Origin: a virus
IMG/VR virus record: IMGVR_UViG_3300040801_000995
Span: 1 to 26,959 of that record
Length of the DNA stretch: 26,959 nt
Direction: 5' to 3' (one strand)
In this document: in pieces, positions 4,646-18,588 of the stretch
Layout: each line of letters opens with the position of its first letter
How positions within the stretch are numbered: the stretch's first letter is position 1
The notes under the pieces: model-generated
Database searches by the model: none
Told to the model about the DNA's origin: nothing
The model's input: only the letters and a program-made list of their open reading frames with translations
Position numbers and translations under genes: made by a program

Positions 4646-5890
4646 TTAAGATCCACATTTAGAATATCCACAATTTGAACACGTAAGACAACCATCTTGA
4701 AAAATAAGACTATCTTCACCACATTCTGGACAAATATTCTTTCCTTCACCCAATTCCAACCCATCTTTTATATAACTTTTTAACATTCTTTTTACACCCG
4801 CTTTCCAAGTACCAACAAATTCACCATCAATTTGTAAACTATCTATTAAGTTTATTACATGTGGAATTGGCATACCATGTCTCAATACAGCAGACACCAT
4901 CTTAGCAGTATCCCAATATTCCTTTTTAAATGCTCTACTCAATCCTCTAATTTCTTGTGGGTAGCCATCTTTATCTTTAAATAAGAAGTCATATCTCTTA
5001 TTATCCACTTCTACTCCATCTTCATCCTTTTCCTTCCACTTTACTTTTTTAATAATTCCTTTTTCAACATAAGATGGAACAGTAAAAGATTCTTGTAAAC
5101 CAGTAAATATTTCATATGGTTGACCATCCAGTAATCCAATAAATCCTATCCATTTTTCACCCTTGTTTACAAATCTTAATATATCACATTCAAGTTTTTT
5201 TGGTCTTCTTGGTGCTTGAGTTTCTTTAATTATATTATTTATTGTTTGTGTTTCATTTTTCTTTTTGTCTTTATCATCATTAGATATCAAAACACCAGAA
5301 CGAGAACCATCCCTATAAATAGTAATACCTTTACAGCCTACTTCATGTGCTTTTTTATACAATTTATCAACAGTTTCAATTGTAGTATCTGCTGGTAAAT
5401 TGACGGTCTTACTTATCGAATGATCCACAAATTTTTGCACACCACCTTGTAACTCCACACTTTCCAACCAATCAACATCATTAGCACATGCACCATAATA
5501 TGGAGATTTTTCAAATGCTTTTTGTAATTCTTCATCTGATGAAAATTTATCTATTTTGACATCATTTATCTTAGCCCAATCTAAAAATTTTGGATGAAAC
5601 ACCACATATTCTTGCCAATGATCTCCAACATCATCAATAAAATCTACCCTTGAATCCTTATCATTTGGATTAATTTTTCTTCTCCTTTTGTAATAAGGTA
5701 GAAATAATGGTTCTATACCAGATGTTGTTTGTGTCATTAACGAAACTGTATTATGTGATATAATTCCACCAGATAATTCGTAATAGTGATCGTTTTCAAC
5801 TTCAATATCCATAGTTTCCTTTCTTCCACTTTCAATATTAATTATTTCTACTTCATTATAATCTAAATTTTCAATATTTATTTTTTTCAT
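4646..5890 (-). CDS. nrdJ: Ribonucleotide reductase NrdJ, C-terminal fragment with C-intein
   Basis: 414 residues. Residues 1-47 are the C-terminal part of a split intein, ending GGIISHN with the usual His-Asn. The extein starts at T48 (TVSLMTQTTSGIEPLF), which joins seamlessly to the TIAPAG end of the N-fragment and rebuilds the conserved RNR finger loop. The rest is the last third of a class II, adenosylcobalamin-dependent reductase, including GCKGITIYRDGSR. The C-terminal cysteine cluster is CPECG, then GCLTCSNCGYSKC, typical of NrdJ and thought to re-reduce the active site. The fragment is useless alone; trans-splicing must ligate it. Its start overlaps the endonuclease gene upstream by 20 bases. 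Exteins together total about 860 residues, normal for NrdJ. Confidence 0.93.
   Translation of the reverse strand: MKKINIENLDYNEVEIINIESGRKETMDIEVENDHYYELSGGIISHNTVSLMTQTTSGIEPLFLPYYKRRRKINPNDKDSRVDFIDDVGDHWQEYVVFHPKFLDWAKINDVKIDKFSSDEELQKAFEKSPYYGACANDVDWLESVELQGGVQKFVDHSISKTVNLPADTTIETVDKLYKKAHEVGCKGITIYRDGSRSGVLISNDDKDKKKNETQTINNIIKETQAPRRPKKLECDILRFVNKGEKWIGFIGLLDGQPYEIFTGLQESFTVPSYVEKGIIKKVKWKEKDEDGVEVDNKRYDFLFKDKDGYPQEIRGLSRAFKKEYWDTAKMVSAVLRHGMPIPHVINLIDSLQIDGEFVGTWKAGVKRMLKSYIKDGLELGEGKNICPECGEDSLIFQDGCLTCSNCGYSKCGS
5750..5890 (-). mobile_element. C-terminal half of the split NrdJ intein 3
   Basis: 47 residues from its own ATG to the terminal Asn codon at 5750-5752. Block F-like TMDIEVENDHYYELSGG and block G IISHN are present, and the +1 residue is Thr. 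It pairs with the 114-residue N-half at 7040-7384. The site interrupts the conserved TIAPAG/TVSLM segment, a known intein insertion point in ribonucleotide reductases. Confidence 0.92.
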
Positions 5891-6983
5891 AAATTTTATT
5901 TATTTTTTGTATTACTTCTTTTATAGTTTTTTCTTTATTTTGTTTATAATCATCTTCCCAAATTATTATTACTTGTGTATTGAATTTTTCTTTTATCTTA
6001 TCTAATCTCTTATTATCATGTGTCCAGGTTTCTTTTACAAAATCTTGATTTATATCATATTTTTTAGGATTTTTATGCCAAAAATCACCATAAAATTCAA
6101 TAACCAAATTTATATCTTTAATATAGAGATCTGGTGAAATTATATTAAAATCTTCATCATAAATAAAAAACATATATTCATTATCACCATAATATATTTT
6201 ATCATATTTTTGTTCTAAATTATTTACAATTTCTTGGCAAAATTCTAAACCAATATTAGAATATCGATTATTTGATTTAAGTCTGTTCTTTATTAAATCT
6301 TTATATTTATCAAATCCATATTTTTTAATATATTTTTCTTTACTATTTTTGTTTGATTTTTTCCATTCATCATATTTTTCTTTACCATTTATCTCACCAT
6401 GCAATTGTATCATCTTTTCTAAAGTAATTGCACACTTTGAACAATTTTCTATATATTTCTTTTTTCCATCTTCTTCACCATATCTTTCAATAAATTTATC
6501 AAGCGATGAATTATTCTGATATTCGCTTAACTTTTTTTGTGCTAATTCTTGATCATTATTGCATTTTTCTAACCAATATTCCATTGTTCTTGGTGAAACA
6601 TTCTTTGTTTTTTTCTCTAACGCATCTAAACATTTTTTTAAAAAAATATCATATTTCTTTTTACCTTCATCTTCACCATAACGCCTAATAAATCCATCTA
6701 AATCTTGTCTGGTATTTAATTTCCAATTTTCATATTTCTTCCTACCTTCATCTTCACCATATTTATTTATCATTTTTTGAAGTGATACTCCAGATTTTTT
6801 ATTTTTTTCTTTTAATTCTTCATATTTTTTTCTACCTTCATCTTCACCATATTTAAGAATATATTTTTCTAATGATGTTCCTCTTATAAATTTATAATAT
6901 AATTCTGATCCTTCGTCTTCACCATATTTATCTATCAATTCTTTATATTTATTAGGATATGATATTTTTTTTATTTTTTTCAT
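5871..6983 (-). CDS. Free-standing Vsr-fold homing endonuclease with KYGEDEG repeats
   Basis: 370 residues. The N-terminal two thirds hold seven imperfect copies of a KYGEDEGRKKYEEWK-like unit (near residues 20, 45, 75, 102, 168, 195 and 221), probably a modular DNA-binding array. The C-terminal 120 residues are a Vsr-type (very short patch repair) nuclease domain: SPDLYI with D285, IEFYGDFWHKNP with H303, and the IIIWEDDY strand at 340-346. The gene lies exactly between the N- and C-halves of the split NrdJ intein. This is the fractured-gene arrangement in which a Vsr-like endonuclease is presumed to home into intein-free nrdJ alleles. Unlike nearly every neighbour it has a good Shine-Dalgarno sequence (AAGGAG), and that sequence is buried in a hairpin. 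Confidence 0.88.
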   Translation of the reverse strand: MKKIKKISYPNKYKELIDKYGEDEGSELYYKFIRGTSLEKYILKYGEDEGRKKYEELKEKNKKSGVSLQKMINKYGEDEGRKKYENWKLNTRQDLDGFIRRYGEDEGKKKYDIFLKKCLDALEKKTKNVSPRTMEYWLEKCNNDQELAQKKLSEYQNNSSLDKFIERYGEEDGKKKYIENCSKCAITLEKMIQLHGEINGKEKYDEWKKSNKNSKEKYIKKYGFDKYKDLIKNRLKSNNRYSNIGLEFCQEIVNNLEQKYDKIYYGDNEYMFFIYDEDFNIISPDLYIKDINLVIEFYGDFWHKNPKKYDINQDFVKETWTHDNKRLDKIKEKFNTQVIIIWEDDYKQNKEKTIKEVIQKINKIYEKNKY

Positions 6984-7039: not shown

Positions 7040-7384
7040 TTATTTTTTCTGAATTATTTTATCACCAATTTTCAATTCTTCAGCTTTCTTCCATATGGCT
7101 TCTTTATCATTCAATTTAACAAGAAATTTATGTTCTAAAGTAGATTCTATTGTAGCATCATTTTCTAATGATATTATTTTTGTTTCTGATTCACCATTCC
7201 AATATAGTTTGGTTATTTTATTCTTCTTTCCATCTATATTTTCTACATAAATATCTTTATGGACATCTAACCATATGTTTTTCAATCCCCTAAATTTATC
7301 TAAATCATATCCATTAACTAAAAATAATTGTGCAAGTGTTATCTCTCCGTTATCTGTTTTTATTTTAGTATCCTCAACTAAACA
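7040..7384 (-). mobile_element. N-terminal half of the split NrdJ intein 3
   Basis: 114 residues (1371-1484) plus stop. It begins at Cys (TGT 7382-7384) directly after TIAPAG and shows block A (CLVEDTKIKTDNGEITLAQL), block B with T-L-E-H (IESTLEHKFLV) and a final IGDKIIQ strand before the stop. The split falls at the usual endonuclease position. With 47 residues in the C-half, the total is 161, the size of a mini-intein. Confidence 0.92.
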
Positions 7385-10300
7385 ACCAGCTGGGGCAATT
7401 GTAAGTAGTGCAATATTTCTCCTACCATACTTTTCCATATCAACTTTTAATTGTGGATCTAAATCAAACAATCTATTAAGAAATGGATTATTTTTTTCTT
7501 TTTCAGAATCATAGATTTTAAATTTTCCTCTTTCTTTTGCTAAATTAACAGATTCTTTAAATGCATTTAATGCTAATGTTTGGTGAACTTTTATTGAAAA
7601 ATTTGTAGCTTCTTTAGTTCCATATTTTATTCCTAATGCAGCTAACATATCACCTTCACCAGTTACACCAGTACCAGTTCTTCTACCAATCTCACACTTA
7701 CTTCTAATTCTTTGCCAAAGATTCTTTTCATAGAATTTAGTGTCTTCAGATTCTGGATCAGATTCTATTTTATTTAAAATCTTATCTATTTGTTCTAACT
7801 CAATATCTACAATATCATCCATATATCTCTGAGCAGTTCTAACATATTTAGAAAATTTATCGAAATTAAATTTAGCATCTTTTGTAAAAGGATTTTCGAC
7901 ATAACTATACAAATTCAATAGGAGCAAACGGCACGAATCCGCATCACATAATACGATTTCTCCACAATTAAGCTGATTTACATTCACATATTTCTTTTTT
8001 CCATTCTTAGTTAGTTCTTCAAATCCAGTAAAATAGTTATGAAAATCATCAACAGTTCCATTATATACATCTTCATATCCATCTTCAATAACTGAAACAA
8101 CTTTATGATTATAAACTTCAGCACTTTCTGAAACTTCTTTGAAATTTTTAAATCCATGTTTAGTTCTTAATCTACATGATGTATTTAATTCTTTACATTT
8201 ATCTTCCCATTCAGATAATTTTGGAATTCTATTTAATTCAAATTTTAAATCAGAATATATTTTAACTTGTTCTTCTTTTGTTTTAGTTGCTTTTAATAGA
8301 TATGCATTATTTACACTATTTGTTCTTTTATCTTTAATATCCTTATTGGTATTTAAATATTTATTTGAACATTCTGAACTACAAAAAGACACTTCTCTTT
8401 TAAAATAATTAATTTGAAATGGTTCTCCACATTCTTCACAATATTTAGTTACAAGAACTTCATTATTTGATATTTCTGCATCATAACCATTATCTAAAGC
8501 TTTTTTATATGTTTTAACCAATCTTGGATCAACATCAATATTATCATATCCTAATTCTAAAGCAATTTTTTTAGATAAAGTAATCACATTACCCAATTGT
8601 CTATATTCAACTAAAACTTGTGGTAAATTATTTTCTTTTGCATATTCTTGCCAATCTTTATATGAAATTCTTCTATCTAATTTTTTTGTTAATACCTTAA
8701 AATGTTCAATTATTTCATCATTAGAAATATTAGAATAATTTGGATTACTTTCACCTGGATGTGATGCAAAATTAAATTTCCACTTATCTTCCATTTTATG
8801 ATATGGATTTTTATTGCCTTCCATCATTAATCCATGATATTTATCATGTTCTTTTTTAGTTAATAATTCTAAGTTATCTAAAGAATTATTCTTACTATTA
8901 AAGTCTTTATGATGAATCACATACCCTTTATCTATTTTATTTCCTGTAAATTGTTCATAAATAAATCTATGTTCTGATTTAGGTTTAGAAAACTTTCCAT
9001 CATTTATCCAAAAATAATCTGAACTTCTTGAATTAGATTTAAAAATATCATCAAAAGATGCTTCCCATTTAGTCATAATATGGAGACTGTCACCCTTTAC
9101 TAAATCTTTAGCTTCTTTATAAGAACCATCTTTAAGTCTAAATTTATGATTTCCAGTTACTCTAATTGAATGTCCACCTTCGATATTAACTTTATAAATT
9201 TTTTGATTAAAATTACTAATTCTTGGGTTTCTCATTGTTCTAATGCACAATTCACCATTGTTATCTAAGGTATAAACAGGAATATCATTTCCTTCTTCTG
9301 CTAATTGTTTAATAGAAACATAATTTCTACCATCAGCAACAGAAACCATTGTATCTCCAACCACACATGGATTTGTTCCAATACTTTTAAATCCTTGATC
9401 AGCATAACAATCTGGAATAGATTCCTTTTCTATAGTGTCCCAGAAAAGAACACCTGGTTCTGCACTTTTATAATTATTCTCAATCAATTTATCCCATATT
9501 TCCTTTGGATCTATTTCTTTTGTTTGTATAGGATTTTCAGACACAATTGGAAATTGTTGAATATATTTTTTTTCATTGTTTAGAGCATCCATAAATGCAT
9601 CATCAATTTTAACAGAAATATTTGCACCAGTAACTTTTGTTGTATCTAATTTAGCATCTATAAAGGCTTTTGAATCTATTGATTTGACATGGGTTGATAG
9701 CATAAGAGCACCCCTTCTCCCACTATTATGAACATAAAAACCATTAGCCCAAAACAAATGAGTATTTTCTAATGTTAAATCATAAACCTCAGAATCTTTT
9801 TCATAAAAATCCTTGGAAACTAATTCATCTTGATATAAATTTGATTCATTTTTTAATTCTACTTTATCTTTTTTCAATCTTTCAATAGTATTTAAAGATA
9901 AATATTGAGAATTATCTGGAACATAATTAAAATCATTATAATTAGATTTAATAAGTATATCTTTACTTTTATAATTGGATATAAAACAATCTCTTTTTGT
10001 TTCTAAAATATTTTCAGAAACTTTACAACTATGTAAAGCAGATTCATAAAATTTAGTTTTACTCGATGCACCAGGTACAGATAAAGTATATAAATCTTTC
10101 CAACCCTTATTACTTCTATCTTCTTTAGATATTTTAGATAAAATACCATAGGTTTGTAAAATTAATTTAACATCAGTTAAAAATTCTCTATTAATTGAAT
10201 GAAATCTATATGATTTCTTTTTCTTTGCATAAGACCCATCAGCATCAAAATATCCAGATATAAATGCCATTTGAACTTTTTTATTTGATTTCTTAATTAA

Positions 10301-11494
10301 TTCTGGAAATTTAATTTTATCACTTTTTTCTTTTGCAATAAAATTATCTATTAAGAAGTCATATAAATATTGTGAGTTTATTCTCAAATTAATCCAATTA
10401 CCTTTATTATATTTTTCATTTAAATTTTTTCCAAATTGTTCTTTAAATATTTTTTTAAGTTTATTTATTATATTTGGTCTTTTAGAATCACAAGCCAATG
10501 ATATTTCAGTTGCTATATGGTTTTGTGTTTCATTTGATATTTTTTTATATATTGATCCATCACCATACATATAACCCAATAAATAGGCAATATCATCATT
10601 TAAATATTTTGGTAAATTTAATTCTTGTATTCTATTTCCATATTGTTTTTCTTTTTTTATTAAAGGTAATAAATCTATTTTATTATTTAGATTTCCATTT
10701 ATCATACTCAATTTTTCACCAATTTTAACGTCCTTTATTCTTTTTTCTCCTTTTAAAGTATGAAAAATATGATCTTCGCTACATATTATTTCATTTCCAT
10801 ATTTTGTAGTTACTTTAATAGTATCTTTTGTGTTTTTTAACTTATTAATGACTTTAACCCATCCATTTTCAGTCCAAACTTCCATTCCGATACTTACATC
10901 TTTTATTTTAATTAAACCATCTTTTGTTAAAATATTTGTATCATATCTTAAACATTGTGCTACTTCTCTAATGCTATTAGAATATCTTTCCATAAATGGA
11001 ACTACGCCAGTTGATGTTAATGCAGCATTTTTAACATGAGTTCCACTTGGTCTAATATGTTCCAATGTTGTTCCAACACCAGCTCTCCTTTTACATAATT
11101 GAATTATTTCTTGGTCTGTTCTTAAAACTGAACCATAAGAATCTTCTGCATTACCATCACCTTTTTCTTGCGCACCAACTACAAAACAATTAGATATTGA
11201 AGATATTTGAAAATCATTACCAATACCTGCCATTGGACTACCTTGTGGTATAATATATTTGAAATCTTTCATTGAATCAAATATTTCATCTTCATTTAAT
11301 GGATTTGTATATTTACTTTCAATTCTAGCTATTTCTTTTGCAATTCTTCTATGCATATCCTCTGGTGATTTTTCATATAAATTACCTTCTGAATCTTTTA
11401 ATGCATATTTATTAATCCATACATTTGCTGGTAATTCTTCACCATTAAAATATTTGAGTGTTTCCTTTAATACTTCTTCTCTTGAATATTTCAT
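7040..11494 (-). CDS. nrdJ: Ribonucleotide reductase NrdJ, N-terminal fragment with two full inteins and an N-intein
   Basis: 1484 residues. Extein segments are 1-180, 591-709 and 1177-1370. It reduces ribonucleotides to deoxyribonucleotides using adenosylcobalamin. The N-terminus (SREEVLKETLKYFNGEELPANVW) is typical of class II enzymes. C103 (SNCFVV) and C1188 (DSCRLL) fit the redox pair. The catalytic N-x-C-x-E motif reads N708-P-C1177-G-E1179 once intein 2 (710-1176) is removed, so C1177 is the predicted thiyl cysteine. Intein 1 (181-590) carries a LAGLIDADG endonuclease, intein 2 an HNH endonuclease, and residues 1371-1484 are the N-half of split intein 3. The remaining third of the enzyme is encoded at 4646-5890. 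Three inteins make up about two thirds of this fragment. Confidence 0.95.
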   Translation of the reverse strand: MKYSREEVLKETLKYFNGEELPANVWINKYALKDSEGNLYEKSPEDMHRRIAKEIARIESKYTNPLNEDEIFDSMKDFKYIIPQGSPMAGIGNDFQISSISNCFVVGAQEKGDGNAEDSYGSVLRTDQEIIQLCKRRAGVGTTLEHIRPSGTHVKNAALTSTGVVPFMERYSNSIREVAQCLRYDTNILTKDGLIKIKDVSIGMEVWTENGWVKVINKLKNTKDTIKVTTKYGNEIICSEDHIFHTLKGEKRIKDVKIGEKLSMINGNLNNKIDLLPLIKKEKQYGNRIQELNLPKYLNDDIAYLLGYMYGDGSIYKKISNETQNHIATEISLACDSKRPNIINKLKKIFKEQFGKNLNEKYNKGNWINLRINSQYLYDFLIDNFIAKEKSDKIKFPELIKKSNKKVQMAFISGYFDADGSYAKKKKSYRFHSINREFLTDVKLILQTYGILSKISKEDRSNKGWKDLYTLSVPGASSKTKFYESALHSCKVSENILETKRDCFISNYKSKDILIKSNYNDFNYVPDNSQYLSLNTIERLKKDKVELKNESNLYQDELVSKDFYEKDSEVYDLTLENTHLFWANGFYVHNSGRRGALMLSTHVKSIDSKAFIDAKLDTTKVTGANISVKIDDAFMDALNNEKKYIQQFPIVSENPIQTKEIDPKEIWDKLIENNYKSAEPGVLFWDTIEKESIPDCYADQGFKSIGTNPCVVGDTMVSVADGRNYVSIKQLAEEGNDIPVYTLDNNGELCIRTMRNPRISNFNQKIYKVNIEGGHSIRVTGNHKFRLKDGSYKEAKDLVKGDSLHIMTKWEASFDDIFKSNSRSSDYFWINDGKFSKPKSEHRFIYEQFTGNKIDKGYVIHHKDFNSKNNSLDNLELLTKKEHDKYHGLMMEGNKNPYHKMEDKWKFNFASHPGESNPNYSNISNDEIIEHFKVLTKKLDRRISYKDWQEYAKENNLPQVLVEYRQLGNVITLSKKIALELGYDNIDVDPRLVKTYKKALDNGYDAEISNNEVLVTKYCEECGEPFQINYFKREVSFCSSECSNKYLNTNKDIKDKRTNSVNNAYLLKATKTKEEQVKIYSDLKFELNRIPKLSEWEDKCKELNTSCRLRTKHGFKNFKEVSESAEVYNHKVVSVIEDGYEDVYNGTVDDFHNYFTGFEELTKNGKKKYVNVNQLNCGEIVLCDADSCRLLLLNLYSYVENPFTKDAKFNFDKFSKYVRTAQRYMDDIVDIELEQIDKILNKIESDPESEDTKFYEKNLWQRIRSKCEIGRRTGTGVTGEGDMLAALGIKYGTKEATNFSIKVHQTLALNAFKESVNLAKERGKFKIYDSEKEKNNPFLNRLFDLDPQLKVDMEKYGRRNIALLTIAPAGCLVEDTKIKTDNGEITLAQLFLVNGYDLDKFRGLKNIWLDVHKDIYVENIDGKKNKITKLYWNGESETKIISLENDATIESTLEHKFLVKLNDKEAIWKKAEELKIGDKIIQKK
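7967..9367 (-). mobile_element. NrdJ intein 2 with HNH homing endonuclease
   Basis: 467 residues (710-1176), inserted between TNP and CGEI, inside the catalytic loop. Splicing blocks: CVVGDTMV at the start, GNHKFRL as block B (N-H rather than T-x-x-H), and VYNGTVDDFHNYFT as block F. The end is VNVNQLN followed by Cys, so the usual penultimate His is Leu. The endonuclease has an HNH core (VIHHKDFNSKNNSLDNLELL, H861/H862, N874, H883) followed by a C-x2-C...C-x3-C zinc-finger element (CEECG to CSSEC). It is contiguous and should splice in cis. Confidence 0.92.
9725..10954 (-). mobile_element. NrdJ intein 1 with LAGLIDADG homing endonuclease
   Basis: 410 residues (181-590), inserted between REVAQ and SGRRGALM. 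It begins at Cys (CLRYDTNIL) and has block B as ICSEDHIF. Two dodecapeptide motifs follow, YLLGYMYGDG (about 304-313) and FISGYFDADG (about 411-420), each with an acidic catalytic residue. It ends GFYVHN with Ser at +1. All splicing residues are standard, so both the intein and the monomeric LAGLIDADG nuclease appear intact. Confidence 0.94.
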
Positions 11495-12222: not shown

Positions 12223-13314
12223 TTATTTAGTTGTACCAATAAATTGATCATTTTCCATCAATAGAAATTTGGTATTAAAATCAAATCTTATTTGTTCATT
12301 TGTATATTCACCATCTCTCAATTTTAATACTTTTAAAATATATTTATTTTCCTTTTTCATTGCAGCATTTCTAATAATACCTAAAACGACATCTGATGTT
12401 TCTGCTACAGCTTTAGATTCTGGTATATCTTTTAATCCAATATCACTCCCACCCCAAACAGATTTATCTGTTTGTGTTGCAGTTATCATTGCAAGTTCGT
12501 GTTTATCTGCAATATATCTCAAACCTTCAGCAAAATGCTTACCTTTTAAAAATAACATATTTCCAATGTCTTGACCTTTTTCCAGACCCATAATATTAAT
12601 ATAATCAACACACACAGCATGTATTTTTATCTTTTTAACTTCTTCTAATTTATGAATAAAATTATCTAATTGGGTTACTGTCATAGAGCTTGTAGGAAAT
12701 TTTTTAACTATTAATTTACCTGGTGTTTGTTCAAACATACCACCACTACCAGCAGCATATTTCATTTCATTAATTTTATTTTTCATATATGTTTCATCCT
12801 TAGATAAATCATTATATTGATCAATAGGTATCTTTAATCTTTGAGATCCCATTCTTTTAATACATTTATGTTCAGCCATTTCTAATGAAACATATAATAC
12901 ATTTTTTCCTTGGTCTGCAATTTTTACACTAATGTTATTTAACCACATAGAATTATGGGATAAAATATCATTGGTATAAAATCTATGATTATCATCTCCA
13001 ATTTCCATATCATACATATTTTCTTTCTGCTTTGTGTTTTCTATTGAAACAACGACATCTGGACCATCTTTAGTTAAAATAACATTATTTGGCTTCAAGT
13101 CTTTCACAAAGACTTCTTCTAAATCTTCATTGAAGACAATATGTGTATCTGCACATTCTAAATAATGTCTTTTTGTTTTTAAGATCCACTTTTCATATTC
13201 TATAGTTTTTCCAATTTTTTTAATATCAGACCAACCACTATCAGTTTCAACTTCCCAACCATCTACATTAAGTGTATCAATAAATTTTCTTTCTATATTT
13301 TCTGATTTTAACAT
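12223..13314 (-). CDS. 41: Replicative helicase gp41, C-terminal fragment with long C-intein
   Basis: 363 residues. Residues 1-121 are the larger part of an atypically split intein. From S122 the extein reads SMWLNNISVKIAD, completing the Walker A motif GETNVGK-S begun at 15437-16150. The DnaB/gp41 core follows: VLYVSLEMAEHKCIKR, as in T4 gp41 VLYISMEMAEEVCAKR, then the Walker B strand IHAVCVDYINIM and the ITATQTDKSVWGGSD segment. The enzyme unwinds DNA 5' to 3' at the fork as a hexamer. N- and C-exteins total about 447 residues, close to T4 gp41 (475). No helicase exists until trans-splicing restores the P-loop. Confidence 0.94.
   Translation of the reverse strand: MLKSENIERKFIDTLNVDGWEVETDSGWSDIKKIGKTIEYEKWILKTKRHYLECADTHIVFNEDLEEVFVKDLKPNNVILTKDGPDVVVSIENTKQKENMYDMEIGDDNHRFYTNDILSHNSMWLNNISVKIADQGKNVLYVSLEMAEHKCIKRMGSQRLKIPIDQYNDLSKDETYMKNKINEMKYAAGSGGMFEQTPGKLIVKKFPTSSMTVTQLDNFIHKLEEVKKIKIHAVCVDYINIMGLEKGQDIGNMLFLKGKHFAEGLRYIADKHELAMITATQTDKSVWGGSDIGLKDIPESKAVAETSDVVLGIIRNAAMKKENKYILKVLKLRDGEYTNEQIRFDFNTKFLLMENDQFIGTTK
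12952..13314 (-). mobile_element. C-terminal part of the atypically split gp41 intein
   Basis: 121 residues. Unlike a normal C-intein (about 40 residues), it contains block B (YLECADTHIVF), the following strands (VFVKDLKPNNVILTKDG), block F (ENMYDMEIGDDNHRFYTND) and block G (ILSHN), with Ser at +1. The complementary N-part at 15437-15535 has only 32 residues. The break is therefore just after block A rather than at the endonuclease position. Confidence 0.92.
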
Positions 13315-13406: not shown

Positions 13407-14093
13407 TTAAATTAAAGTTATTGATTTTGGATTGAAATGGTTATATGTATAAACACCACTGGATCTTGGATCTTTATATAATTTTAAATTTCCTATATTA
13501 TTTATATCAATTTCTAAGACAACATATTTAAAATTATTTCCATACATTTTATCTCTGAATTCATTTTGTTCTTTAATTTTGAAAACATCTTTTTTATTTA
13601 ATGAAAAATAAATTCTATCTAGTCTCCAATCTCCTTTTTTATCATATTTTGGAATTAGTCCATTTTTCTTTATTTTATTTAAGTTTTCTATTTTTGTAAC
13701 ATGATATAAATTATCTGGTTTATATTTTAATTCTTCATCATATTTTGAATCAAAAAATAATTCACATTTATCTTTATTTTTTGATTCCTTTAAGAAAAGA
13801 TTAACACTTATCCAAGGAAAAGATTTTACCATTTTTTTCGTATTATATATTTTATAATAAGAAATATAATATCCTAAATTATTAAATATATGAAACATAT
13901 ATTCTAACTGATTTTCATTAAGTGTTTCTTCAAATAAAACCTTGAATAATCCATCATTATAATTAAATTCTACATTATACCATATTTTTAAATCTGATAG
14001 AGTTCTATCTATAATTGAATCACATTTATTTAGATTATGTGTAGTTATTAAACCATCTTTTATCATAACCACAAAATCACTATATTTTAACAT
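13407..14093 (-). CDS. Predicted ADP-ribosyltransferase-fold protein in the gene 41 break
   Basis: 228 residues with two parts. Residues 1-125 are unrecognised alpha/beta. Residues 126-228 show the pattern of small ART-fold enzymes (KptA/Tpt1, DarT and PARP-like groups): LYHVTKIENLNKIKKNGL with H131, RIYFS with Y162, a VVLEIDI strand, and LYKDPRSSGVYTYNHFNP with D208 and Y215. Family knowledge suggests NAD-dependent transfer or RNA 2'-phosphate chemistry, but the third catalytic residue is not certain. It is a clear paralogue of the protein at 16865, which lies in the uvsX break. It is followed by the gene 41 C-fragment and preceded by an 80-residue gene. Fold assignment is from motif shape only. 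Confidence 0.55.
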   Translation of the reverse strand: MLKYSDFVVMIKDGLITTHNLNKCDSIIDRTLSDLKIWYNVEFNYNDGLFKVLFEETLNENQLEYMFHIFNNLGYYISYYKIYNTKKMVKSFPWISVNLFLKESKNKDKCELFFDSKYDEELKYKPDNLYHVTKIENLNKIKKNGLIPKYDKKGDWRLDRIYFSLNKKDVFKIKEQNEFRDKMYGNNFKYVVLEIDINNIGNLKLYKDPRSSGVYTYNHFNPKSITLI

Positions 14094-14101
14094 TTCAATC
14101 T

Positions 14102-14344
14102 TTAGTTTTTAAATTCTATATCATCAAATTCAAATAATATATTAGAAAAAATAGGGTAGTTTTTATCATTCAATTTTAAAAATCCAAACTTATAATCACC
14201 AACAACATCTTGTTCAATGTTCTTTTGAATTGGGATAAATGATTTAAAATTTTCTACTATTTTACTAAATTCATATGATATATGAATTTCTTGTTTATCT
14301 TTAATATTATCTTCTATAAATTTTATTATTTTATCTTCATTCAT
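14102..14344 (-). CDS. Unknown 80-residue protein in the gene 41 break
   Basis: 80 residues, acidic, with helix at the N-terminus (EDKIIKFIEDNIKDKQ) and strands after it (YKFGFLKLNDKNYPIF). Its start overlaps the end of the endonuclease gene by eight bases, and its stop is eight bases from the ART-like gene, so all three are probably co-translated cargo. It could be a partner or inhibitor of the ART-like protein, but no homology supports that. Confidence 0.65.
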   Translation of the reverse strand: MNEDKIIKFIEDNIKDKQEIHISYEFSKIVENFKSFIPIQKNIEQDVVGDYKFGFLKLNDKNYPIFSNILFEFDDIEFKN

Positions 14345-15431
14345 ATTTTAAAAATTTTTTACATTTTTCTATAACTAATTTTGGGTTTTCTTTAAATTCA
14401 TCTTCCCATATAACTAAAACATCAAATCCATTTTCTTTTGCTAAATTTATCTTATATTCATCCATTTTCCATATATCTTCTGATTTCAAATGTTTTAAAT
14501 ATGGATGTGGATTGTCACATTTTTTAAATATTTTTGGGTTTGCATGATATACATCACCATTAAATTCTATTATCTTTTTCCTACTTATATTTGTATAATC
14601 ATATTTCTTATTTGTTATATTGTATTCGTAATTTTTTTCACCATAAAAAACATATTCATTATTTTCCAACATTCTAAATAATTCTTGTGATACCTCAGAA
14701 TATCCTATTTTTAGTTTTCCATTTTTATTTAAACTTTCAATCCATTTTTCTTGCCTATTTATAAAAACTTCCAAACCTTTCTTATAACCATATTTTTCAA
14801 TGCAGATTTTCCTTGAAAATGTTTCTTGTCTTTCTTTTATTTTTTCTTTTGCTTCTTCTTTATTAAAACCTTTTTTAATCCAATAATCTATTTGTGTTGT
14901 ATTTACATCTTTATATAATTCTGGTTTATTTCTTCTTTTGTTCCATGTTTTCTTATGTAAATTGTTCAACACATATTCAATATTCAATGTGGATTCTTCT
15001 TCGTTAAATCCTCTTTTTAACCAATATTCCTTACATTGATGACTTCTTTCTTTATTAAAATTTGGATTTTCTTTTAGTTTTTTGTTGATTGTTTTTTTAT
15101 ATGATTTTTTTCTATCTTTATTAAGTTTATCTAATCTTTGGACTGCATCTTCTTTTGACAATTCTAACATTTTTATACCATATTCTATAGTATATGTGGC
15201 TCTACTTTTTGAAATACAATTTTTAGATTTACATATTTTTTTATATCCTTTAGTATATCCTATTAAGGAACAAACATCACCACAAAAAACACATCTTGGT
15301 CTATTTATTTTTGATATAAATTTATCATAATAATCTTCAATAGTAATATCGTTTTTATGTGACATTTTTATATGTTTCTGAATATTGTTTATTCCGTTAA
15401 ATTCTTTACCACATAGTTTACATTTTATCAT
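14337..15431 (-). CDS. Free-standing zinc-finger Vsr-fold homing endonuclease
   Basis: 364 residues. It begins with a C2H2 zinc finger (C4-x2-C7-x12-H20-x4-H25) and continues with a second cysteine cluster (C47, C50, then C67 and C72). Residues 135-235 hold repeated KKGFNKEEAKEKI-like helices that probably contact DNA. The C-terminal 115 residues form a Vsr-type nuclease: D278 in KYDYTN, EFNGDVYHANP with H296, and VLVIWEDEF at 338-346. It lies five bases after the stop of the gene 41 N-fragment, so it is placed to home into the GETNVGK/S codons of intein-free helicase genes. Its DNA-binding region differs completely from that of the nrdJ endonuclease. Confidence 0.85.
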   Translation of the reverse strand: MIKCKLCGKEFNGINNIQKHIKMSHKNDITIEDYYDKFISKINRPRCVFCGDVCSLIGYTKGYKKICKSKNCISKSRATYTIEYGIKMLELSKEDAVQRLDKLNKDRKKSYKKTINKKLKENPNFNKERSHQCKEYWLKRGFNEEESTLNIEYVLNNLHKKTWNKRRNKPELYKDVNTTQIDYWIKKGFNKEEAKEKIKERQETFSRKICIEKYGYKKGLEVFINRQEKWIESLNKNGKLKIGYSEVSQELFRMLENNEYVFYGEKNYEYNITNKKYDYTNISRKKIIEFNGDVYHANPKIFKKCDNPHPYLKHLKSEDIWKMDEYKINLAKENGFDVLVIWEDEFKENPKLVIEKCKKFLKYE

Positions 15432-15436
15432 ATAAA

Positions 15437-15535
15437 TTAATTTTCTATTGATTTAAAAAAATCATAAATATTAATCCGTTTAATTTCGTTATTGTTTTTA
15501 TTACGAACTGTAATTAAAGTATTTGGTGAAAAACA
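15437..15535 (-). mobile_element. N-terminal part (32 residues) of the atypically split gp41 intein
   Basis: Only block A and the following helix are present (CFSPNTLITV, then INIYDFFKSIEN and stop). Known atypically split inteins, such as AceL-TerL with a 25-residue N-part, have this layout. The insertion is at GK/S of the P-loop, so unspliced helicase cannot bind ATP properly. Confidence 0.9.
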
Positions 15536-16150
15536 TTTTCCAACATTAGTCTCTCCTATAATGACATTTAATGACTGATAATCCCAACCACCACTCAACA
15601 CAGTATCCAAACAACTCCAACCAGTATTAATCTTATGTATAACTTCATCTTGTCTATGGACATTTGGATCATCAAAGTCAGAACCTAAATCAGAATCATC
15701 ATCATCTATTAAATCTATTTCATTAGAAATATTTTTTATTTGATTAACAATTTCTTTAACATTATCATAATCAGTTTCATCAACATTTCTAACTTTTTCA
15801 ATGGATTTTGTTATATTGTCTCTTAATTTATTAGACAACTTCCATGATTTAAATCTTGGCTCCAACCACCCATCTTCATATTGAGAATTATCTTGTTTAA
15901 GTATTAATTTTAATGTATTTGCATCCATTTCTCTAACTTCAGAATGCATTTTAACCATAGCAAAAATTTGTTTTGCTGAAGGTACTACTTTAACTTTACT
16001 GACTATATATTCTTCTCTGATTATACTATAAACAAACCTAATATCTTCATTTTTAAAATAATGTGGTTCTACTTTTGTTATTTGATCACTATTATCTAAT
16101 ATATGACGGAAATATACTTTTTCCATCAATACATTCATTTTTTCTGACAT
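15437..16150 (-). CDS. 41: Replicative helicase gp41, N-terminal fragment with short N-intein
   Basis: 237 residues. Residues 1-205 are the N-terminal domain and linker of a gp41/DnaB-family helicase, with an acidic linker around LIDDDDSDLGSDFDD. It ends in GWSCLDTVLSGGWDYQSLNVIIGETNVGK: the first half of the RecA-like core, cut within the Walker A motif between Lys and Ser. Residues 206-237 are a 32-residue N-intein starting C206 (CFSPNTLITVRNK), followed by the stop. The start is four bases from the uvsX C-fragment stop, matching the adjacency of uvsX and gene 41 in T4-type phages. Confidence 0.92.
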   Translation of the reverse strand: MSEKMNVLMEKVYFRHILDNSDQITKVEPHYFKNEDIRFVYSIIREEYIVSKVKVVPSAKQIFAMVKMHSEVREMDANTLKLILKQDNSQYEDGWLEPRFKSWKLSNKLRDNITKSIEKVRNVDETDYDNVKEIVNQIKNISNEIDLIDDDDSDLGSDFDDPNVHRQDEVIHKINTGWSCLDTVLSGGWDYQSLNVIIGETNVGKCFSPNTLITVRNKNNNEIKRINIYDFFKSIEN

Positions 16151-16153
16151 TGA

Positions 16154-16846
16154 TTAATCTTTATTATTTTTTAGTTTTTCTTGAACTTCTTTCAGTTCGT
16201 CTTCAAGTTCTTCTTCCATTCTTTTGATACTTTTCTGTTGTTCTTCATAACTTGAATATGAAAAATATTTTTCTATTATTGGCTCTAATGCATCTAACAC
16301 ATCATTATTAAATATCTCCGCAGTGTGTAATTCTTTTGTATAAAATGTTTTTCCTAAATGTCTTACATACCATTTAGTTCCACCTGGAATAAAGTTTCCA
16401 TCTTTATCAGCTTTACCTTTTGCAATTCCAACTTTTTCATAATTTTCTTCTGTACAAAATGCTTCCAAACCTTTATATGGATTAGTTCCTTGATCAAAAT
16501 TTATATCAAATTTAATTTTCATTGGTTTTGCTAACCTATTCTTTATAGATTTTGCGGTTACTTTAATACCATCTTGTCCAATATCTTGAACATAATCATC
16601 CTTACTAAAAGATGTTGGATCTGATGTTTTATCATCCAGTTTTGCAATAGACATCAATACTACTGTTGATGCTGAATATTTAACACCTTCACCACCACTC
16701 ATAACAGCAGTAGGAAATAAATCCTGTGAATTGTGTGATACTATCCCATTTTCCATTAAATAATGATGTGAATCTTTGATTTGTATATCAAAAACTTTCT
16801 GAGATTGTATTTTATTAATAGATTTAATTTTTAATTCTTTAAACAT
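16154..16846 (-). CDS. uvsX: Recombinase UvsX, C-terminal fragment with C-intein
   Basis: 230 residues. Residues 1-39 are a C-intein ending GIVSHN. From S40 the extein reads SQDLFPTAVMSGGEGVKYSA, matching T4 UvsX after its NHT motif (MFSKTVMTGGTGVMYSA), and continues through the C-terminal part of the RecA/UvsX core. The last 30 residues are charged and helical (EEELEDELKEVQEKL). UvsX coats ssDNA and drives strand invasion for recombination-dependent replication. The extein total with the N-fragment is about 406 residues (T4 UvsX 391). It follows the ART-like gene by 18 bases. Confidence 0.93.
   Translation of the reverse strand: MFKELKIKSINKIQSQKVFDIQIKDSHHYLMENGIVSHNSQDLFPTAVMSGGEGVKYSASTVVLMSIAKLDDKTSDPTSFSKDDYVQDIGQDGIKVTAKSIKNRLAKPMKIKFDINFDQGTNPYKGLEAFCTEENYEKVGIAKGKADKDGNFIPGGTKWYVRHLGKTFYTKELHTAEIFNNDVLDALEPIIEKYFSYSSYEEQQKSIKRMEEELEDELKEVQEKLKNNKD
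16730..16846 (-). mobile_element. C-terminal half of the split UvsX intein
   Basis: 39 residues from its own ATG to Asn (16730-16732). Block F is KVFDIQIKDSHHYLMENG and block G IVSHN, with Ser at +1. Length and motifs are those of a canonical C-intein. Confidence 0.92.
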
Positions 16847-16864
16847 GATTTTATATTATTTTTT

Positions 16865-17593
16865 TTATTCTTCATCATAGACTTTTATTCTATTTGGTGA
16901 AATATTATCAACTAAATAATAACCACCATCATAATTTGGATCTTTATAAATTTTTATATCTAAATTTTTAGTATTTATTTCATATATAATCCATTTATCG
17001 TTTATTTTATATTTACTATTATAGAATTTGTTTAACTGATATTCCCTCTTCATACTATTTATTAAGTTATAACATTTATCAACTTTACTACAAACATATA
17101 TTCTATCTAAATGATTTGATATTTTTGATTTAGATTTTGGTGATATACCATTTTTTATAATATTTTTATTAAATTGTTGAATAGATAAATGATATAATTT
17201 ATCTGGTAACTTTATTTCAACATCAAATTTGGGTTCAAATATAATAGTTATTTCTTTTACAATATTATAACTTTGTTTCAAAAATTCTTTGTTAAATTTA
17301 TTAACATATTTTTTATCTTTTAAATTTACCAATTGCATTGTTGAGGGGAACCATCCAAACCTATCAATAAACAAATTACATATATAATCCAATTCAGTAC
17401 AATAAATATCTTTTGTAGTCTTTATAGGGTTATAAATTAATTTTAATTTATTTTCATCTATCGTTAAATCAAAATTATAATTTAATAATGACAATTCATT
17501 AAATACAGATTTATATGTTTTTTCTATATTAATGGTTTTTAATGTTTCATTAATAATAAATTCATAATATGTTTCTATAAAATTATGTTTCAT
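16865..17593 (-). CDS. Predicted ADP-ribosyltransferase-fold protein, sole cargo of the uvsX break
   Basis: 242 residues, paralogous to the protein at 13407. After an unrecognised N-terminal domain of about 128 residues comes an ART-like part: KLYHLSIQQFNKNIIKNGI with H135, LDRIYVCSK with Y166, the strand WIIYEINTKNLDIKIYKDP with D218, and GGYYLVDNISPNRIKV with Y225. No Vsr, HNH, GIY-YIG or LAGLIDADG motif is present. It lies exactly where a homing endonuclease would be expected between two intein halves. Its ATG shares a base with the stop of the uvsX N-fragment (TAATG), so translation is coupled. Possible roles are host or phage target modification, RNA 2'-phosphate removal, or an unknown nuclease; the fold call is from motifs only. 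Confidence 0.55.
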   Translation of the reverse strand: MKHNFIETYYEFIINETLKTINIEKTYKSVFNELSLLNYNFDLTIDENKLKLIYNPIKTTKDIYCTELDYICNLFIDRFGWFPSTMQLVNLKDKKYVNKFNKEFLKQSYNIVKEITIIFEPKFDVEIKLPDKLYHLSIQQFNKNIIKNGISPKSKSKISNHLDRIYVCSKVDKCYNLINSMKREYQLNKFYNSKYKINDKWIIYEINTKNLDIKIYKDPNYDGGYYLVDNISPNRIKVYDEE

Positions 17594-17943
17594 TAATCTA
17601 CATACTGCTTTTTTTCTTTTTCATAATTTTCATTTAATATTTTTGAAACTTCATCATATGCTAAAATTATATCATCATCTTCTAAATCAATTGCAGCTTT
17701 CCAGCAATTTGCATTTTCATCAGATTTCCATTCTTTTTTTACTAAAAATTTATGATTTGGTGTACAAGATATTTTATCACCATTTTCCAATTCTATCTCA
17801 AAAACTTCACTATTTTGATACTCAAAAACATCTTCTACTACTTTACTTCCATCTAAAGTTTTTACTACATCACCTTTAATTATATCAGATATATCTATAA
17901 TTTCTCCATTTGACATTTGTACTTTATTACCTTCAGGCATACA
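17593..17943 (-). mobile_element. N-terminal half of the split UvsX intein
   Basis: 116 residues plus stop, starting at TGT 17941-17943. Blocks A and B are canonical (CMPEGNKVQM; ISCTPNHKFLV). The last 20 residues are a charged helix and may help the two halves associate. With the 39-residue C-half the total is 155. Confidence 0.92.
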
Positions 17944-18588
17944 CATATAAATATGATTTGTTGCAACCATAGGTATACCAAGATAACCCATATCAGATGT
18001 AATTACCCTAAATAAGGATTTCAATCCTTTTGCCCTAGACATATCCACTTTTATTTTTCCATCATGTGCATCTTCTATTTCTTTGTTTGATGCTAATTGA
18101 CCAATAGAATCTAAAACAATTAACCATTTTCCTATTTCTAATCCTTCTTGTTTCTTTTGTTTTAATGATTCTAAAATTTGAGACAACCCGATTTTTATTT
18201 CTTCCACCATATTATTTCTCAAAATTCTAAATCTAGATTCATCAGTGTTTATACCATATCTTTCCATTTCTTCTCTTTCTACTGCATATTCAGTATCAAT
18301 AAATATGATATTATATCCATCTTTTTGTGCATTTCTTGCAATATTATAGCATATATAACTCTTCCCACAACCAGGAGGACCTGCAAAAATTGTAATTCTA
18401 TTATCTGCAACTCCACCTTTTCTAATATTCTTAGAAAGAAGTGCATTCATAACATAATTTCCGGTGTCTATAAATGTTTTTTCTTTTTCACTTTCTTCTA
18501 CTATTATTGTTGTTTTTTTAGATAATGTTGAAAATACATCATCCAAATCAGTCATATTCAATCCAGTTGAACTTTTCTTTTTTGCCAT
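17593..18588 (-). CDS. uvsX: Recombinase UvsX, N-terminal fragment with N-intein
   Basis: 331 residues. Residues 1-215 are the N-terminal extein: Walker A GPPGCGKS (70-77), the NIIFIDTEYAV strand, Walker B WLIVLDSIGQLAS, and a break at VATNHIYM, next to the conserved NH that contacts ATP in RecA-type proteins. Residues 216-331 form an N-intein that begins CMPEGNKVQMSNGEI and has block B CTPNHKFLV. A long charged tail (YEKEKKQYVD) precedes the stop, so the N-half is 116 residues. This is the first gene of the leftward block and should be made early, as in T4. Confidence 0.94.
   Translation of the reverse strand: MAKKKSSTGLNMTDLDDVFSTLSKKTTIIVEESEKEKTFIDTGNYVMNALLSKNIRKGGVADNRITIFAGPPGCGKSYICYNIARNAQKDGYNIIFIDTEYAVEREEMERYGINTDESRFRILRNNMVEEIKIGLSQILESLKQKKQEGLEIGKWLIVLDSIGQLASNKEIEDAHDGKIKVDMSRAKGLKSLFRVITSDMGYLGIPMVATNHIYMCMPEGNKVQMSNGEIIDISDIIKGDVVKTLDGSKVVEDVFEYQNSEVFEIELENGDKISCTPNHKFLVKKEWKSDENANCWKAAIDLEDDDIILAYDEVSKILNENYEKEKKQYVD

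What the first reader, a model, noticed from the sequence alone, without database searches (positions are those of the whole stretch)
16865..17593. The uvsX intein break holds an ART-like gene and no endonuclease
In known fractured genes the insert is a homing endonuclease. Here the only gene between the uvsX intein halves has H135/Y166/D218/Y225-type motifs of an ADP-ribosyltransferase fold and no nuclease motif I can see. Either an endonuclease was replaced by a cargo gene, or this is a new nuclease or mobility factor, or the ART protein gives the phage a benefit that keeps the locus.
Basis: partly seen in the sequence, partly recalled or inferred. Interest (0 to 1): 0.8.

Follow-up and report, generated by a model that had tools for sequence, protein, structure and literature searches.

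The report
ADP-ribosyltransferase gene inside split-intein gap
In a giant-phage DNA fragment, the gap in a recombinase gene that a split intein repairs at the protein level, a gap that relatives fill with a self-spreading DNA-cutting gene or leave empty, instead holds a gene for a likely NAD-using ADP-ribosyltransferase, so a mobile element's niche has become a parking place for a phage accessory gene.

Summary
At 16865-17593 (-) a 242-aa gene is the only gene between uvsX-N+IntN (17593-18588) and IntC+uvsX-C (16154-16846). It is not a nuclease. Its AlphaFold model has an ADP-ribosyltransferase (ART) C-domain: Tpt1/KptA NAD lobe, Foldseek E 3e-5, VIA Z 10.8. The N-domain is ferredoxin-like. 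H135, R164, Y166 and D218 are invariant in 14 relatives.

Comparison decides the origin. The same uvsX split-intein site in five other phage loci holds a DUF7487 PD-(D/E)XK homing endonuclease, fused to IntC or free-standing. In three loci (one a partial, possible near-duplicate) the gap is empty (18-74 nt), and the closest relative has intact uvsX. No endonuclease trace remains in the window. The best reading is that the endonuclease was lost and an ordinary jumbo-phage ART gene took the space.

The ART family is a multicopy accessory family of jumbo phages. Every other copy examined lies outside intein gaps. The one exception is a second, separately captured ART in this same window, beside the endonuclease in the gp41 gap; a sister phage carries a Dam methylase there.

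The most likely role is a T4 Alt/Mod-like host modifier; a gp21-type N-terminal tag hints at packaging in the head. Activity and target are unproven.

The parts
17944..18588 (-). uvsX N-terminal extein (215 aa, ends TNHIYM)
   Evidence: phrog_97 UvsX E=1.2e-44; in-silico splice aligns with intact UvsX of L007
17593..17943 (-). uvsX IntN half of the split intein (116 aa, Cys1, CTPNH block) and stop codon
   Evidence: Pfam Intein_splicing 1.1e-7 and Hint 4.2e-7; 46-49% identical to IntN of L083 and L086; same insertion site
16865..17593 (-). ART-like gene: N-terminal tag (1-20), ferredoxin-like domain (24-122), ART domain (123-242) with H135/R164/Y166/D218
   Evidence: AlphaFold pLDDT 79.9; Foldseek and VIA to Tpt1/KptA; invariant residues
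16730..16846 (-). uvsX IntC half (39 aa, ends HN before Ser+1)
   Evidence: Intein_splicing 2.3e-4; alignment with the IntC of L083/L086, where it is fused to an endonuclease
16154..16729 (-). uvsX C-terminal extein (starts SQDLFP)
   Evidence: phrog_18112 recombinase 1.6e-12 and phrog_97; 72% identity to L007
15437..16150 (-). gp41 (DnaB-type helicase) N-half with short IntN (32 aa)
   Evidence: syntenic with L007, L086, L020; splits at GETNVGK/C
14337..15431 (-). homing endonuclease of the gp41 gap (phrog_22677 family)
   Evidence: phrog_22677 7.1e-21; 36-63% identical homologues in the gp41 gap of L007, L113, L114, L115, L120
14102..14344 (-). 80-aa gp41-gap passenger shared with L007 (56%)
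   Evidence: blastp E=1.3e-26; found in no other held locus
13407..14093 (-). second ART paralogue (228 aa) inside the gp41 gap
   Evidence: E=1e-13 to the uvsX-gap ART; AlphaFold pLDDT 83.4, VIA Z 11.8 to KptA
12223..13314 (-). gp41 IntC (121 aa) + C-terminal extein
   Evidence: Pfam DnaB_C 3.9e-13; 74% identical to L007

Best explanation
The uvsX gene is broken by a split intein at a recurrent site (TNHxY[M/A] / [S/T]). The operon is translated as three proteins: UvsX-N-IntN, the ART protein, and IntC-UvsX-C. The intein halves join the UvsX halves by trans-splicing (inferred from intact catalytic residues). The gap once held a PD-(D/E)XK (DUF7487) homing endonuclease that spread this intein; in this lineage it was lost. 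An ART gene from the phage's own multicopy accessory ART family now fills the space, overlapping the uvsX-N stop by one base. The ART is therefore cargo: it is not needed for splicing or homing, but it sits in an operon the phage cannot easily lose. The protein has a Tpt1/KptA-type NAD-binding ART domain (shown by prediction) behind a ferredoxin-like domain and a short N-terminal tag with a gp21-type L/I-x-E site. The most likely biochemistry is NAD-dependent ADP-ribosylation of a host protein or nucleic acid, as for T4 Alt/ModA/ModB (inferred), possibly after packaging in the head (weak inference). Estimated likelihoods: ART fold 0.95; endonuclease lost and replaced 0.85; functional trans-splicing 0.85; active transferase 0.65; head-packaged 0.4.
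For: Fold: AlphaFold pLDDT 79.9. The top 18 Foldseek PDB hits are all Tpt1/KptA, best E 2.6e-5. VIA Z 10.8 at 2.6 A over 92 residues (123-240), then pertussis S1, DarT1, PltA and TreX. Viral structure hits are RNA 2'-phosphotransferases or uncharacterized proteins. The paralogue model gives the same answer, Z 11.8. Sequence: profile-to-PDB hits are Tpt1 and DarT1, marginal at E 0.08-0.3; homologue L101 matches PF01885 at 3.4e-5 and also carries an ART-PolyVal domain at 2e-24. Replacement: same intein and same site with DUF7487/phrog_3339 endonuclease in L083, L086 (fused to IntC), L130, L134, L135 (free-standing); empty in L133, L136, L150; intact uvsX in L007; no endonuclease trace by tblastn in the window gap. 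Cargo: family members stand alone elsewhere, up to 6 matches per record; the window ART nests at 99/95 support with free-standing copies L013_a, L014_a and L016_a; its GC is 18% against 27% for the exteins. Tag: [LIV]xE[GT]L/I in nearly all members; tag-like N-termini occur in 6.9% of proteins against 2.3% of internal windows; an S77 prohead protease match is found in LR756501, LR756502, Lak-B5 and a 345-kb contig; gp21 cuts after L/I-X-E and T4 Alt is a packaged ART (PMC9026906).
Against: No biochemistry. The third catalytic position of classical H-Y-E ARTs is not clearly filled; D218 is invariant but its active-site role is not shown. The window is a 27-kb fragment, so an endonuclease acting in trans from elsewhere cannot be excluded. 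The order of loss and gain (deletion then insertion, or direct replacement) is unknown. The ART lies in a replication operon without a T4-type late promoter signal above chance, which speaks against packaging as a late head protein. Direct Pfam matches of the window protein itself are absent.
Confidence: 0.8

Rival explanations
1. The ART protein is itself a new mobility factor: it modifies DNA or recombination proteins at the intein-free uvsX site and thereby drives spread of the split intein without a nuclease.
For: It sits exactly where the endonuclease is found in other loci; DarT-type ARTs modify DNA (general knowledge); two ARTs in one window occupy two gaps.
Against: All other family copies examined lie away from inteins. 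The nearest relatives of this ART are free-standing genes. The gp41-gap ART coexists with a normal endonuclease. No other locus with the uvsX intein carries an ART.
Confidence: 0.04
2. A true RNA-repair enzyme: a divergent Tpt1/KptA RNA 2'-phosphotransferase that heals tRNAs cut by host defence nucleases.
For: Closest fold is Tpt1/KptA; PF01885 matches homologues L101 (3.4e-5) and L102 (7e-4); jumbo phages do encode KptA (PMC9503650, PMC7824862).
Against: Tpt1 needs a winged-helix RNA lobe and an Arg-His-Arg-Arg tetrad, three of whose residues lie in that lobe (PMC6333775). Here the N-domain is ferredoxin-like and its only invariant residue is G80. All PF01885 scores are below Pfam's cut-off.
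Confidence: 0.12
3. The gap is simply a neutral landing place: the ART gene landed there by illegitimate recombination and gives nothing.
For: ART copies decay in relatives (L104 remnant; a copy with stops in G010). Empty gaps are viable (L133, L136, L150).
Against: The frame is intact at 18% GC (chance of a 242-codon open frame 3e-13), catalytic-type residues are conserved, and codon position 2 differs least from homologues (0.27-0.30 against 0.45-0.48 at position 3), so it has been kept functional until recently.
Confidence: 0.12
4. Ancestral linkage: the ART stood directly after an intact uvsX (as in L003 and L058) and the fracture formed around it by rearrangement, rather than the ART entering an endonuclease slot.
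For: An ART gene follows intact uvsX at once in LR756502 (L003, 16 nt downstream) and in L058.
Against: The L003 and L058 ARTs are not in the four-row clade of the window ART. Only 1 of about 73 uvsX loci fetched by uvsX itself has this neighbour, about what chance gives. The closest relative L007 has no ART after uvsX.
Confidence: 0.08

Closest known systems
Fractured genes with split inteins and a free-standing homing endonuclease (Dassa et al. 2009, NAR 37:2560; text not held, recalled, cited in PMC10448857 and PMC3653736)
   Same: DNA-metabolism gene broken in two by a split intein with a gene between the halves; EDxHD/Vsr-like or PD-(D/E)XK endonucleases in the gaps of relatives and of the window's own gp41 and nrdA
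   Different: The uvsX gap has no endonuclease; its only gene is an ART
Tpt1/KptA RNA 2'-phosphotransferase (PF01885)
   Same: NAD-binding lobe fold (Z 10.8-11.8) and an LYHxT...GLxPK motif
   Different: Ferredoxin-like N-domain instead of a winged helix; three of the four Arg-His-Arg-Arg tetrad residues have no counterpart; second motif is R-x-Y, third is D-P
T4 Alt/ModA/ModB and polyvalent-protein ARTs (PF18760)
   Same: Phage ARTs of large myoviruses; N-terminal L/I-x-E tag as in gp21-processed head proteins; one homologue (L101) fused to ART-PolyVal
   Different: Alt, ModA and ModB are R-S-E ARTs; this family is H-Y-D-like; packaging not shown
DarT1 / Tox-ART-HYD1 families
   Same: H-Y-type ART motif; weak sequence match (E 0.07-0.11)
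   Different: No antitoxin or macrodomain partner next to it; no significant Pfam match for the window protein

Membership tests
Fractured gene / split-intein locus | Conserved gene in two ORFs carrying complementary intein halves with catalytic residues (Cys1, TxxH block, HN/S) | tested here: met
   spliced UvsX aligns gap-free with intact L007 UvsX
Fractured gene / split-intein locus | Endonuclease gene between the halves | tested here: not met
   No nuclease motif, no trace of the relatives' endonuclease, ART fold instead
ADP-ribosyltransferase superfamily | ART fold of the NAD-binding domain | tested here: met
   Foldseek 2.6e-5; VIA Z 10.8; replicated with the paralogue
ADP-ribosyltransferase superfamily | Conserved H-Y-[E/D/Q]-type catalytic residues | tested here: inconclusive
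   H135, Y166 and D218 invariant in 14; whether D218 is catalytic cannot be told from the model
ADP-ribosyltransferase superfamily | NAD-dependent transferase activity | not testable with these tools
   needs protein
Tpt1/KptA (PF01885) | Winged-helix RNA lobe with Arg-His and Arg of the catalytic tetrad | tested here: not met
   N-domain ferredoxin-like, only G80 invariant there; definition from PMC6333775
Tpt1/KptA (PF01885) | Pfam match above the gathering score | tested here: not met
   window protein none; best homologue 24.4 bits against cut-off 26
Homing endonuclease | Nuclease motif or fold | tested here: not met
T4 Alt-like packaged ART | N-terminal propeptide with gp21-type L/I-x-E cleavage site; prohead protease in the genome | tested here: inconclusive
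   Tag in nearly all members, S77 protease matches in LR756501, LR756502, Lak-B5 and G010; cleavage and packaging not testable, window lacks head genes
T4 Alt/Mod clade | R-S-E active site | tested here: not met
   Family invariants are H, R, Y, D; clade definition from PMC5512222
Tox-ART-HYD1 (PF15633) | Pfam match above cut-off | tested here: not met
   14.3 bits for the paralogue only, cut-off 25

The most novel reading that the evidence does not exclude
In some jumbo phages, split-intein gaps in essential replication genes act as cargo docks. Once the endonuclease has fixed the intein, the gap captures accessory effectors (ART, Dam methylase) that gain a secure, co-expressed position in an operon that cannot be lost, sometimes displacing the endonuclease altogether. 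Here two ARTs from different branches of the family were captured in two gaps of one genome.
Probability: 0.35. Interest if true: 0.68.

Novelty: new variant of a known kind. Interest (0 to 1): 0.5.

Why it matters
It gives a series of states at one site: intact uvsX, endonuclease fused to the intein, endonuclease free-standing, empty split, and split with a non-nuclease passenger. That makes the life cycle of split inteins after loss of their endonuclease directly testable. It also suggests that selfish elements can leave behind durable insertion niches for phage effectors, and it describes an ART family, widespread in huge phages, with an unusual ferredoxin-like partner domain.

Tried and rejected
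Pfam and PHROG scans of the window protein gave nothing significant. Single-protein scans of viral contigs with each ART found no relative; a three-sequence alignment succeeded, while the seven-sequence alignment was too divergent to scan with. No match in plasmids or bacterial genome contigs. Relatives by kinship cannot be drawn for a virus record. T4-type late promoters (TATAAATA) are not enriched: 20 found, 15.7 expected. A link between ART genes and uvsX was considered because L003 and L058 have an ART right after intact uvsX; the unbiased count (1 of about 73) is too low to claim it. Duplication from one gap to the other within the window was rejected: the uvsX-gap ART groups with free-standing genes at 99/95 support and the gp41-gap ART does not join it. 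Dassa 2009 is not in the library; no held paper has 'split intein' and 'uvsX' together.

Full report
Observation. The window is a 26,959-base virus record with jumbo-phage-like genes. On the minus strand lie uvsX-N with IntN (17593-18588), the 242-aa gene in question (16865-17593) and IntC with uvsX-C (16154-16846). The gene overlaps the uvsX-N stop by one base, and 18 nt separate its stop from the IntC start. IntN (116 aa) has Cys1 and a CTPNH block; IntC (39 aa) ends HN/S. The spliced product, joined in silico, is 406 aa and aligns without a gap at the junction to the intact UvsX of the nearest relative L007 (70% over 395 aa).

What the protein is. AlphaFold with eight family members gave pLDDT 79.9. 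The top 18 Foldseek hits in the PDB are all Tpt1/KptA RNA 2'-phosphotransferases (best E 2.6e-5). VIA places residues 123-240 on the NAD lobe (Z 10.8, 2.6 A, 92 residues); pertussis S1, TreX, PltA and DarT1 follow. Residues 24-122 resemble ferredoxin-like folds (circularly permuted S6, Z 8.9), which is only suggestive. A model of the paralogue gives the same answer (pLDDT 83.4, Z 11.8); the two models share family members, so they are not fully independent. Predicted structures of viral proteins agree. By sequence, profile hits in the PDB are Tpt1 and DarT1 at marginal E-values, and homologues L101 and L102 match PF01885 at 3.4e-5 and 7e-4, below the curated cut-off; L101 also carries an ART-PolyVal domain (2e-24). 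G80, H135, I145, G149, R164, Y166 and D218 are invariant in 14 members. No nuclease signature was found. It is not a canonical KptA: the winged-helix RNA lobe and three of the four catalytic tetrad residues (PMC6333775) have no counterpart.

What the gap holds elsewhere. Viral contigs were scanned with a uvsX alignment (73 loci) and with the IntN alignment (79 loci). At the same uvsX site (TNHxY[M/A] / Cys1), L083 and L086 have a DUF7487 endonuclease (7e-47 and 7e-45) fused in frame to IntC. L130, L134 and L135 have a free-standing homologue (DUF7487 in L130 and L134, phrog_3339 'homing endonuclease' in L130). All five carry a PD-x-ExK motif. L133, L136 and L150 have only 18-74 nt between the halves; L136 is a partial locus with an IntC like that of L133, and the site in L150 is one residue off. 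L007, the closest relative, has no intein in uvsX. The window is the only locus with another gene there, and tblastn finds no remnant of the endonuclease. Gaps at other split inteins held nuclease-like ORFs or, in L143, nothing.

The second gap. The window's gp41 gap holds an endonuclease, an 80-aa ORF and a second ART (13407-14093; E=1e-13 to the first). The gp41 gap holds only an endonuclease in L113, L114, L115 and L120, but in L007 it holds an endonuclease, a homologue of the 80-aa ORF (56%), a 116-aa ORF and a D12-class adenine methylase (6.9e-21). Passengers thus occur in the gap in this lineage, and they differ between the two phages.

Where the ART comes from. Relatives occur in LR756501 (735 kb), LR756502 (642 kb), Lak phages and several contigs, up to six matches per record (some of them fragments), some decayed. 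All copies examined outside the window stand free of inteins. A tree puts the uvsX-gap ART with free-standing copies L013_a, L014_a and L016_a (99/95); the gp41-gap ART is elsewhere. L007's contig has a decayed ART outside any intein, whose N-terminus is 43% identical to the gp41-gap ART. The two window ARTs are therefore best read as separate captures. Both have 18-19% GC against about 27% for the flanking exteins. Position-specific divergence shows constraint.

How it may work. The inferred chain is: one operon makes both UvsX halves and the ART; trans-splicing restores UvsX; the ART acts on its own. Nearly all members carry an N-terminal [LIV]xE[GT] site. Similar tags start unrelated proteins in these phages (6.9% against 2.3% in internal windows). 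Matches to an S77 prohead protease are present in LR756501, LR756502, Lak-B5 and G010 (only the Lak-B5 match exceeds the curated cut-off). T4 gp21 cuts after L/I-X-E and T4 Alt is an ART packaged in the head (PMC9026906), and myoviruses are rich in ARTs (PMC9503650). I therefore favour a host-modifying ART, possibly packaged. Against packaging, the gene lies in a replication operon and no late promoter stands out.

Verdict. Target, activity and benefit are open. It is a new variant of fractured split-intein genes.

Noticed in passing
window 7040-11494 and 4646-5890 (-): nrdA appears to carry three inteins: one with LAGLIDADG-like motifs (GYMYGDGS, GYFDADGS), one with an HNH-like stretch (HHKDFNSKNNSLDNLELL), and a split one with a Vsr/EDxHD-like endonuclease gene (5871-6983).
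   Followed up: partly
window 15437-16150 and 12223-13314 (-): The gp41 intein is split very early: IntN is only 32 aa and IntC is 121 aa, unlike the usual late split.
   Followed up: no
L011 2545-5678 (Lak-B5 uvsX): Lak-B uvsX is fractured at a different site (IPQNIQAMG / SGIVYN) with a 463-aa ORF that looks like an endonuclease between the halves; Lak-A uvsX is intact.
   Followed up: partly
L101 1492-2721 (-) in G012; L109 1297-2325 (-) in G002: Apparent double-ART proteins: L101 joins an ART-PolyVal domain to the family's ART domain; L109 has a weak PARP-like N-part (E 0.011) before it.
   Followed up: partly
L096 1159-2745 (+) in LR756501: A family member fused to about 250 extra C-terminal residues with no Pfam match.
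   Followed up: no
L104 1501-2300 (+) in G005: Remnant of an ART resembling the gp41-gap ART (N-terminal ~50 aa, then a GVYSYNHINPN-like C-terminal piece in another frame), outside any intein, in the sister phage whose gp41 gap holds Dam.
   Followed up: partly
L003, L010, L038, L054, L059 and others: Many unrelated jumbo-phage proteins start with M[IK]KK[YFW]xxF[IVL]xE, resembling T4 capsid-targeting propeptides; candidate head-packaged proteins.
   Followed up: partly
L083 5998-7941 and L086 5969-7903: Pfam DUF7487 ('unknown function') members here carry a PD-(D/E)XK motif and lie fused to split-intein C-halves, so DUF7487 is probably a homing endonuclease family.
   Followed up: yes
L016 5974-9965: Two ART genes with a 378-aa ORF between them and a 473-aa ORF after the second; the sequences look like DNA-methyltransferase starts (no family scan made), suggesting an accessory island.
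   Followed up: no
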